Virus record (IMG/VR): IMGVR_UViG_3300009499_000008
Location: 1 to 64,000 of that record
Length of the DNA stretch: 64,000 bases
From: a virus
Reading direction: 5' to 3' (one strand)
Shown: piece after piece, positions 32,948 through 38,432 of the stretch
Numbering within the stretch: position 1 is the first letter of the stretch
Layout: the number at the start of each line of letters is the position of its first letter
Position numbers and translations under genes: made by a program
The notes under the pieces: model-generated
What the model was told of the DNA's origin: nothing
The model's input: the letters and a program-made list of their open reading frames with translations, nothing else
The model's database searches: none

Positions 32948-33143
32948 ACTTATGCCAAACTTAGTCGAGGCAAATTGTGGAAGCTGTGCTCACTGTGAGC
33001 GACTTTACTATGAAGACTTTATGGGATTTCTTCTGGAGACTGCTTCCGCTGATAGAAAACAGCTTGCTTTGGGGCGTTGTATTTCCAAAAATTTATTGGT
33101 GACATTAGTGAGTTCCTGCAAGGAATGGAAAGATACAATATGA
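32940..33143 (+). CDS. Small Cys-rich protein
   Basis: 67 aa. CGSCAHCERLYYED and later GRCIS and SSCKEW give five Cys; similar small Cys proteins are known from phages and may bind zinc. GGGGGAA upstream. Overlaps the polymerase end by 8 bases and the methylase start by 4. Confidence 0.58.
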   Translation: MSKLMPNLVEANCGSCAHCERLYYEDFMGFLLETASADRKQLALGRCISKNLLVTLVSSCKEWKDTI

Positions 33144-33748
33144 ACAATATACAACTTTATCACGGTGACTGCTTAGAAGTGATGAAGATGCTGCCTGATG
33201 CCTCTGTGGACGCAGTAATAACTGATCCTCCATATCTACGAAAGTATCTTCCACTATATGGTCTGATGGCGGCAGAATTACCAAGACTACTCAAACGAGG
33301 AGGTAGTTTATTGGCAATAGTGCCCCACTATGCAATGCCAGAAGTTTTAACTATGGTAGGACGGTATCTCAAATATCGCTGGATATGTTGTATGTGGCAG
33401 ATGGTTGGGAATCATCCGCGTATGGCGATGGGAATAGAAGTAATATGGAAACCTATAGTATGGTGGGTGAATAAAGCATGGCCGCAGAGACGTGGTTTTG
33501 TTCGAGATGGCTTTGAGAATGTACAACCTACAAAGTTATTACATAAATGGGAACAGTCTTTGAGTTGGGCTGAGTATTGTTTGCGATTTGTACCAGCGGG
33601 AGCCGCTGTGATCGATCCTTTTATGGGTAGCGGAACAACTGGCGTGGCCTGCATCCAAGCGGGGCACAACTTTATCGGTATTGAGATCGATGAGGGATAT
33701 TTTAACGTCGCCAAGCAACGCATCGAGGAGGCGCAACGAACATGCTAA
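33140..33748 (+). CDS. DNA methyltransferase (N4-cytosine/N6-adenine)
   Basis: 202 aa from ATG 33140 overlapping the previous stop. DPPYLRKYLPLYG is the catalytic motif IV, and DPFMGSGTTGVACIQAG is the SAM-binding motif I, at the C-terminal side (beta-class order). GDCLEVMKMLPDASVD at the start is typical. No companion nuclease lies beside it, so it probably protects phage DNA from host restriction. Confidence 0.85.
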   Translation: MNNIQLYHGDCLEVMKMLPDASVDAVITDPPYLRKYLPLYGLMAAELPRLLKRGGSLLAIVPHYAMPEVLTMVGRYLKYRWICCMWQMVGNHPRMAMGIEVIWKPIVWWVNKAWPQRRGFVRDGFENVQPTKLLHKWEQSLSWAEYCLRFVPAGAAVIDPFMGSGTTGVACIQAGHNFIGIEIDEGYFNVAKQRIEEAQRTC

Positions 33749-36797: not shown

Positions 36798-38432
36798 ATG
36801 ACAGGAATTTCAATAATTCAAGGTGATGTTATTGAGGTTCTCAAGGATTATCCAGATGAGTCTTTCACCGCTTGTTTCTGTGATCCGCCATATGGCCTCA
36901 AATTTATGGGTAAAGAATGGGATCACGGTGTTCCAGCAATTCCTTATTGGGCAGAGGTACTACGTGTGCTCAAGCCTGGCGCAGTGCTCATGGCATTTGG
37001 AGGCACGAGAACTTGGCATCGGTTGGGAGTGGCCATTGAGGACGCGGGATTCGAGTTGTTCGATACTATGATGTGGCTTCATGGACAGGGATTTCCGAAA
37101 TCTCATAGTATTGGGAAAGCGCTGGACAAGGCGGCTGGCGCGGAACGAGAGGTGATAGGGCAAGCAGATCGCAGAAGTGGCCCTGGTCGTCATATGGCTG
37201 CCTTGGCTGGACATCGTGGCGAGAGTGTCATCCCAAACATCACTGCACCCGCCACCGACGCCGCCAAGATCTGGGAAGGTTATGGGACTTCCCTTAAGCC
37301 CGCCTGGGAGCCAATCCTCCTAGTTCGCAAACCCCGCACCGCGACGTATGCGCAGACTGCGATGGAGCACGGTTCTTCTGCTCTCAACATCGACGGTTGT
37401 AGAATTGCCAGTGCCAAACCCCATGTCATCAATACATGGGATGATGGCGCTAAACCTTTTGGTGATGGTGCAGGGCATCCCTTTACAGGTCGTCAACAAA
37501 GTGGAAGATGGCCAGCGAATTTGATACTTGACGAAGTAGTGGCGGAGATGCTGGATGCACAACAGAAAGGAACCTCACGGTTTTTCTACTGTGCAAAAAG
37601 TTCACGACGAGAAAGAGATGCAGGATTAGAAGAGTTTGACAGTACGGAACAAGTATGCTATGATGAAACTCTACCACTAACCGAACAGGAGAGTTTATCA
37701 TGGGAAAGCACGGGCCTCATTCAAGCCATCCAAGTGGCTACGGATGGACTACAAAGAAGGGCTATCATCGTTTCTGCCTTTGGAATCCTGCCACCAAAAG
37801 TAGTAGACTTGTGCTTGCTCATGTGTATGTTTGGGAGAAAGCCAATGGGTCGATTCCTACAGGCTCTACTTTGCATCATATCAACGGCGACAGGCAAGAC
37901 AATCGCATTGAAAATCTACAACTTGTTACATTCTTGGAGCATAAGCGAATCCACAGCGGATGTGAACTCCGAAATGGTGTATGGTGGAAACCATGTAGCA
38001 TCTGTGGAGAATTCAAACCAATTATCAAAGAACATTGGTACTTCTCCAAAGAAGGTTGGCCTCTCTATGGAAGATGTAAACCGTGCCACATCAAAATTGT
38101 CGTCATCAAAAAGCGTGCTCGAAAAGCTAGACAAAAGATGCAGACGTAAACCAGCGCACCCAACCATAAAGCCGCTTGCTCTTTGTAAATATCTAGCCAC
38201 TCTCATCATCCCACCAGAAGAGTATCGAGACGATGCTAACCTCCTGATCCCCTTCGCTGGTGTAATGAGTGAAGCAATCGGAGCACTCTTAGCAGGGTGG
38301 AGAAATATCACCGCGATTGAACTTGAGAAGGAATATTGTGAGATTGGTCAAAAGCGTATTGATTGGTGGGTTGTCAAAATAAAAGAAACTGGACTAACCG
38401 ATCCTAAAGCTATTCTAAAGAGAGGAAGCTGA
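36798..38432 (+). CDS. DNA methyltransferase interrupted by an HNH gene
   Basis: 544 aa from ATG 36798. Residues 1-280 hold motif IV (CDPPYGLKFMGKEWD) and LLVRKPR. The C-terminal 95 residues have KPAHPTIKPLALCKYL and a motif I variant (LLIPFAGVMSEAIGALLAG). Between about 282 and 450 the frame is open but looks non-native, because an HNH endonuclease gene with its own promoter lies there in another frame. The two halves match one adenine-methylase family. The protein may tolerate a large insert, or be inactive. Stop overlaps the RuvC-like gene (TGATG). Confidence 0.8.
   Translation: MTGISIIQGDVIEVLKDYPDESFTACFCDPPYGLKFMGKEWDHGVPAIPYWAEVLRVLKPGAVLMAFGGTRTWHRLGVAIEDAGFELFDTMMWLHGQGFPKSHSIGKALDKAAGAEREVIGQADRRSGPGRHMAALAGHRGESVIPNITAPATDAAKIWEGYGTSLKPAWEPILLVRKPRTATYAQTAMEHGSSALNIDGCRIASAKPHVINTWDDGAKPFGDGAGHPFTGRQQSGRWPANLILDEVVAEMLDAQQKGTSRFFYCAKSSRRERDAGLEEFDSTEQVCYDETLPLTEQESLSWESTGLIQAIQVATDGLQRRAIIVSAFGILPPKVVDLCLLMCMFGRKPMGRFLQALLCIISTATGKTIALKIYNLLHSWSISESTADVNSEMVYGGNHVASVENSNQLSKNIGTSPKKVGLSMEDVNRATSKLSSSKSVLEKLDKRCRRKPAHPTIKPLALCKYLATLIIPPEEYRDDANLLIPFAGVMSEAIGALLAGWRNITAIELEKEYCEIGQKRIDWWVVKIKETGLTDPKAILKRGS
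37636..37664 (+). promoter_or_regulatory. Promoter of the HNH endonuclease gene
   Basis: TTGACA (37636-37641), 17-bp spacer ending TATGC (extended -10), TATGAT (37659-37664), 35 bases before the HNH ATG. It sits inside the methylase gene at the edge of the inserted segment. Confidence 0.75.
37700..38149 (+). CDS. HNH homing endonuclease inside the methylase gene
   Basis: 149 aa, AGGAGA before the ATG, in frame +2 relative to the methylase. The HNH core reads LAHVYVWEKANGS, LHHINGDRQDNRIENLQLVT and LEHKRIH, with the expected His, His, Asn and His. A C-terminal Cys cluster (CSICGE and GRCKPCH) may hold zinc. Such enzymes nick or cut target genes to spread. No room exists for a group I intron around it, so it is a free-standing cassette. 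Confidence 0.88.
   Translation: MGKHGPHSSHPSGYGWTTKKGYHRFCLWNPATKSSRLVLAHVYVWEKANGSIPTGSTLHHINGDRQDNRIENLQLVTFLEHKRIHSGCELRNGVWWKPCSICGEFKPIIKEHWYFSKEGWPLYGRCKPCHIKIVVIKKRARKARQKMQT

What the first reader, a model, noticed from the sequence alone, without database searches (positions are those of the whole stretch)
37636..38150. HNH endonuclease cassette nested out of frame inside an open DNA methylase gene
The HNH gene (37700-38149) has its own promoter (TTGACA, N17, TATGAT) and ribosome site. It sits between the N-terminal methylase part (motif IV, up to about residue 280) and the C-terminal part (HPTIKP and the motif I region from about 452). The methylase frame is open across roughly 170 codons of unrelated-looking sequence in another frame. 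No intron core fits beside it, and an intein would have to be in frame. A free-standing homing cassette appears to have inserted, or the region evolved, so that both frames remain translatable.
Basis: partly seen in the sequence, partly recalled or inferred. Interest (0 to 1): 0.78.

Follow-up and report, generated by a model that had tools for sequence, protein, structure and literature searches.

The report
Endonuclease gene hidden inside phage methylase
A virus DNA-methylase gene carries a mobile DNA-cutting enzyme gene written in another reading frame of the same DNA, and dozens of relatives show that the methylase frame is kept free of stop codons, so a selfish gene can sit inside a host gene without splicing and, apparently, without breaking it.

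Summary
A 149-aa HNH_3 endonuclease gene (37700-38149) lies out of frame (offset 2) inside a 544-codon N6_N4 methylase ORF (36798-38432) that stays open throughout. A syntenic relative without the HNH gene (L001) has an unrelated 29-aa linker there. The same cassette (78% aa) sits at the same site in a much more distant methylase (L014). Searching by the HNH frame alone gave 59 close relatives: 53 lie inside a host ORF (nearly all methylases), always in the same relative frame with no host-frame stop (about 60 expected at 95% clustering); 6 lie just after a methylase stop codon and all have stops. The host-frame amino acids are not conserved; only openness is. The leader carries a sigma70-like promoter (24 of 39 leaders score high, 0 of 115 controls), and in many copies the HNH stop codon is written into the methylase motif HPTVKP as HSTVKP. 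No intron or intein signal was found in this window. The kind is published: the ShiLan domain (PMC11855218, 2025). This is a different HNH family at a different site, with evidence of selection on the host frame. Splicing, methylase activity and homing are untested.

The parts
36798..38432 (+). N6_N4 (beta-class) DNA methylase ORF, 544 aa, open through the nested gene
   Evidence: PHROG phrog_67 E=2e-38; AlphaFold2 model matches CcrM/RsrI folds
37636..38140 (+). mobile cassette, edges set by the jump in identity to L014 (ungapped)
   Evidence: 30-nt bins: 63% before, 87% from 37640; falls to 37% at 38180
37636..37664 (+). sigma70-like promoter TTGACA-N17-TATGAT in the cassette leader
   Evidence: perfect TTGACA-N17-TATAAT in L014/L099, L113, L122, L135, L188
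37687..37691 (+). Shine-Dalgarno-like AGGAG, 8 nt before the HNH start codon
   Evidence: sequence; a similar purine-rich site in only about a third of relatives
37700..38149 (+). HNH_3 endonuclease gene, 149 aa, offset 2 from the methylase frame
   Evidence: purifying selection in this frame: differences by codon position .177/.122/.313
37635..38156 (+). methylase residues 280-453: read-through segment between AGLEE and HPTIKP, in the place of a 29-aa linker in L001
   Evidence: pLDDT <50 at residues 281-454 between confident halves
38157..38432 (+). C-terminal methylase part (HPTIKP, PFAG), needed to complete the fold
   Evidence: 86% aa identity to L001; profile hit

Best explanation
A mobile HNH homing-endonuclease cassette sits in the variable linker between the target-recognition part of a phage N6_N4 methylase and its HPTVKP/motif I part. 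The endonuclease is read in one frame, from its own promoter and start codon inside the cassette. The methylase frame crosses the same DNA as a stop-free linker of arbitrary sequence, so the methylase is made as one longer protein with a floppy loop and nothing needs to be spliced. Spread is by cutting methylase genes without the cassette near the conserved sites and repair from the occupied copy. Shown here: the anatomy, the absence of the segment in a relative, horizontal movement, selection for an open host frame, and a conserved promoter. Inferred: translation of both products, cutting of the empty site, and activity of the long methylase.
For: Empty homologue L001 in the same gene order with a 29-aa linker. 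Same cassette in L014: HNH 78% aa with sharp edges, methylase flanks much less similar. HNH similarity is only weakly correlated with methylase similarity over 666 pairs (Spearman 0.25), with many pairs near 80% HNH and 45% methylase. Relatives chosen by the HNH frame only: 47 in viral contigs, 43 open in host frame +1 and 4 outside a methylase; 12 in genome contigs, 10 open and 2 outside. Host-frame stops 0 against 63.7 expected; the 6 copies outside have 2-7 stops, near their expectation. Host-frame identity equals the codon-shuffle expectation (23.7% against 22.6% at 40-50% HNH identity), as in the unused third frame, so only openness is kept. Promoter in leaders. HxTVKP: Pro in 62 of 65 empty genes, 12 of 37 occupied (Ser in 21); CATAGC makes the HNH stop TAG. 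AlphaFold2: confident halves, disordered insert; Foldseek hits CcrM 6pbd and RsrI 1nw8.
Against: No transcript, protein or activity data. A clear ribosome site occurs in only about a third of relatives. L101 and L185 have host frames that end soon after the HNH gene, which may be decay or assembly error. The methylases may be dispensable, so tolerance does not prove activity. The cut site is unknown. Several classifications rest on open frames, although copies were selected by the HNH frame.
Confidence: 0.88

Rival explanations
1. A self-splicing intron (group I or II) carrying an HNH ORF; the open host frame is incidental and the segment is removed from the mRNA.
For: Phage HNH endonucleases often ride in group I introns (established knowledge); the insert lies in a conserved gene.
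Against: No Rfam match in the region at E<=1 or in the window. HNH covers about 440 of about 505 nt of the cassette, leaving about 60 nt for a ribozyme core. An intron would not be selected to lack host-frame stops, yet 0 are seen where 63.7 are expected.
Confidence: 0.04
2. An intein-like element removed from the protein.
For: Relatives of this HNH do sit out of frame inside true inteins in other genes (L108, L146, L179-L183).
Against: No Hint or splicing domain in the window's methylase frame; its residues are not conserved beyond the shuffle expectation; AlphaFold2 gives disorder.
Confidence: 0.03
3. Overprinting: the long segment is an original methylase domain and the HNH ORF arose within it.
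For: Both frames are open over about 150 codons.
Against: HNH_3 is a widespread family with free-standing members; a close syntenic homologue lacks the segment; the HNH frame shows the 3>1>2 substitution pattern and the methylase frame no conservation.
Confidence: 0.01
4. A degraded situation: the methylase is dead and the host frame is open only by chance.
For: For the window alone P(open)=0.105; close relatives of phage ShiLan can lack the methylase altogether (PMC11855218).
Against: Family-wide openness (0 against 63.7) with closed frames in the 6 copies outside; C-terminal half well conserved (86% to L001).
Confidence: 0.04

Closest known systems
ShiLan domain of mycobacteriophage methylases (Arsenault, Gosselin and Gogarten 2025, PMC11855218; 2023, PMC9957025)
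   Same: HNH gene out of frame in a phage N6_N4-type methylase, third frame (offset 2), methylase frame open, no intron or intein signal, patchy distribution.
   Different: Other insertion site (after ALKPxxEPxxxAxKP against after ERNxGLD); HNH only 34% identical over 53 aa, with a different layout. ShiLan has no detected ribosome site, and its authors suggest leaderless initiation; here a promoter is conserved. This family is found far outside actinobacteriophages.
Pacc40 gp60 hidden endonuclease (same paper)
   Same: Out-of-frame endonuclease ORF in a phage methylase; similar genes also free-standing next to methylases.
   Different: Described by its authors as different from ShiLan and of less certain HNH identity; its sequence was not compared here.
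Free-standing HNH_3 homing endonucleases of phages
   Same: Same Pfam domain PF13392.
   Different: Stand between genes; relatives outside a methylase keep no open second frame.
Endonuclease genes in inteins or group I introns
   Same: Selfish nuclease in a host gene that must stay functional.
   Different: Those are removed by protein or RNA splicing; here the segment appears to stay in the protein as a loop.

Membership tests
ShiLan-type hidden HNH insertion (as a kind) | HNH ORF out of frame inside a phage methylase ORF that stays open | tested here: met
[quoted passage not shown]
   offset 2 here and in all open nested copies
ShiLan-type hidden HNH insertion (as a kind) | Distribution not following the methylase (homing) | tested here: met
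ShiLan domain itself (same element) | Same insertion site and homologous HNH along its length | tested here: not met
   different site; 34% over 53 aa only. L141 carries both elements at their two sites.
HNH_3 (PF13392) | Profile match above curated cut-off; HH..N..N residues | tested here: met
   61.2 bits against 24.8; H59 H60 N68 N72 invariant
Homing endonuclease | Cuts the empty allele near the insertion site | not testable with these tools
   no biochemistry
Group I/II intron | Catalytic core | tested here: not met
   no Rfam match
Intein | Hint/splicing blocks at the ends | tested here: not met
   no Pfam Hint match in the methylase frame
N6_N4 DNA methylase (PF01555) | DPPY motif IV and motif I region in one chain with the class fold | tested here: met

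The most novel reading that the evidence does not exclude
Read-through nesting is a general, repeatedly evolved way for homing endonucleases to live in host genes without splicing. At least five endonuclease lineages (window type, ShiLan type, L008 type, L007/L015 EndoVII-like type, L121 first gene) use it at several methylase sites, always in the one relative frame their codons can keep stop-free; some methylases hold two such genes, and others sit inside inteins. Selection keeps the host frame open while leaving its amino acids free.
Probability: 0.65. Interest if true: 0.72.

Novelty: new variant of a known kind. Interest (0 to 1): 0.58.

Why it matters
Homing genes inside host genes were thought to need an intron or intein to avoid harm. 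This family shows a third way: being written so that the host frame passes through. It gives natural controls (same family inside and outside genes), a quantitative signature of selection on a second frame, an internal promoter, and a host motif change (HPTVKP to HSTVKP) that supplies the nested gene's stop codon. It also matters for annotation: such genes are usually skipped because they lie inside another ORF.

Tried and rejected
Intron: no Rfam match, no room for a core. Intein in the window: no domain. Overprinting: refuted by L001. Selection on the amino acids of the host-frame segment: none beyond the shuffle expectation; the two-sequence site-class counts hinted at it, but they mix codon positions. 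Solved structures of this HNH family: no sequence match in PDB. Phage isolates: the window-type nested cassette was not recognised among the listed HNH hits, which looked free-standing (only the best 40-60 rows of each were seen). Long alternative-frame ORFs in GC-rich methylases (L018, L023, L073, L079) were examined and look like chance, with no HNH features. Mycobacteriophage Lilac has an intein and not the ShiLan element. A DNA-pattern scan added no new contigs.

Full report
What is there. The window is part of a 79,674-base virus record. The methylase ORF (ATG 36798 to stop 38432, 544 aa) matches PF01555 over residues 25-518, with DPPYG at the N-terminal end and HPTIKP...PFAG at the C-terminal end. 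Between AGLEE (to residue 279) and His454 lie 174 residues without any family match. In the frame at offset 2, the same DNA encodes a 149-aa HNH_3 endonuclease (37700-38149).

Not part of the original methylase. L001, a relative with the same neighbours (ribonucleotide reductase, methylase, RuvC-like gene), has 66% and 86% aa identity on the two sides and an unrelated 29-aa linker in place of the segment. L014 carries the same cassette (HNH 78% identical, ungapped over the whole cassette) in a different methylase; DNA identity jumps from about 63% to 87% at 37640 and falls to 37% at 38180. Identity of HNH genes and of their methylases is only weakly correlated.

A family specialised for this arrangement. 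A search of viral contigs with the HNH frame only gave 47 close relatives. Of these, 43 lie in an open host frame, about 41 of them in N6_N4 methylases at or near this site (after RFFYCAKASKxERNxGLD, before HxTVKP). The other four stand just after a methylase stop codon, mostly behind ParB-type methylases. In genome contigs 10 of 12 are open inside a host gene and 2 stand behind a methylase. All open nested copies have the same relative frame.

Why that frame, and is it selected? Shuffling synonymous codons shows that the +1 frame of these HNH genes meets only about 0.7-2 stops by chance, while the +2 frame meets many and is never open. Over the family, 0 stops are seen where 63.7 are expected; relatives that are not nested have 143 against 133.8. 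With one representative per 70% cluster it is 0 against 29.8 in 23 clusters, and the six close copies outside genes have 2-7 stops each, close to expectation. The HNH frame shows the normal 3>1>2 substitution pattern. The host-frame amino acids are no more alike than codon shuffling predicts for diverged pairs. So the HNH protein is conserved, while the methylase frame is kept open but otherwise free.

Control signals. The cassette starts with TTGACA-N17-TATGAT. L014, L113, L122, L135 and L188 have the perfect TTGACA-N17-TATAAT at the same place; 24 of 39 leaders score >=9.5 of 12 against 0 of 115 control windows. Part of TTGACA is the codons for the methylase residues GLD. A ribosome site is clear here and in about a third of relatives. 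At the other end, in many relatives the HNH stop codon TAG is formed by CAT AGC, turning the methylase motif HPTVKP into HSTVKP: Pro in 62 of 65 empty genes, Ser in 21 of 37 occupied ones (Fisher 9e-12). The window itself keeps Pro and ends its HNH gene 7 nt before the His codon (sequence).

Protein. AlphaFold2 (24-sequence alignment) gives confident methylase halves and pLDDT below 50 for residues 281-454; Foldseek finds CcrM (6pbd) and RsrI (1nw8). The insert is a loop in a linker that is naturally variable in this enzyme family. Mean pLDDT is only 58, so the model supports tolerance of the loop and not its structure.

Wider pattern. Other HNH types are nested, also at offset 2, at other methylase sites: L008, L007/L015 (EndoVII-like) and the first genes of L121 and L141. 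The L141 first gene is a ShiLan-type HNH (40% over 168 aa) at the ShiLan site, with a window-type gene at its own site in the same methylase. One methylase (L006) is instead split by an HNH gene in the other frame. Relatives sit out of frame inside inteins of a ParB-methylase (L108, L179-L183) and of a terminase (L146).

What is known. The kind was described in 2025 as the ShiLan domain, with a second case in Pacc40 (PMC11855218, read; earlier PMC9957025; a further annotated case in PMC12613952). In the papers held here I found no description of the window-type family, its promoter, its stop codon in HPTVKP, or a test of selection on the host frame; bioRxiv is not held, and a related preprint is cited there (Gosselin et al. 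2025). Hence: new variant of a known kind.

Limits. Nothing here is experimental. Some loci are the same virus from several samples, which is why clustered counts are given. The openness test is conservative because shuffling keeps each gene's own codons. L101 and L185 have host frames that end early and may be decayed.

Noticed in passing
L141:684-3110 and L121:681-3146: Methylases that hold two nested out-of-frame HNH genes each; the first in L141 is ShiLan-type at the ShiLan site, outside actinobacteriophage isolates.
   Followed up: partly
L146:3-3128 (also L147, L148): Terminase-like ORF with two inteins; an HNH_3 gene is nested out of frame in the second intein, between its splicing blocks.
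   Followed up: partly
L108:1146-3218, L179-L183, L185: ParB-type methylases with an intein whose middle is an out-of-frame HNH gene, in viral contigs and in bacterial MAGs (Accumulibacter, Janthinobacterium, Iodobacter).
   Followed up: partly
L006:2980-5075: Methylase split into two ORFs by an HNH gene in the other relative frame: what happens when the host frame is not kept.
   Followed up: partly
L015:1639-3561 against L018:200-1792: Nearly identical methylases (99% over 1067 nt, 100% over 229 nt) with and without an EndoVII-like nested gene; the region between is replaced, suggesting co-conversion.
   Followed up: partly
L182:2375-3613: Window-type HNH nested in another methylase class just before YPTEKP, in a betaproteobacterial MAG.
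   Followed up: no
L001:5843-6535: GIY-YIG-like ORF between the exonuclease and helicase genes, a place where the window has no such gene.
   Followed up: no
window 33077-33748: A second, short (223 aa) DNA methylase gene upstream of the ribonucleotide reductase.
   Followed up: no
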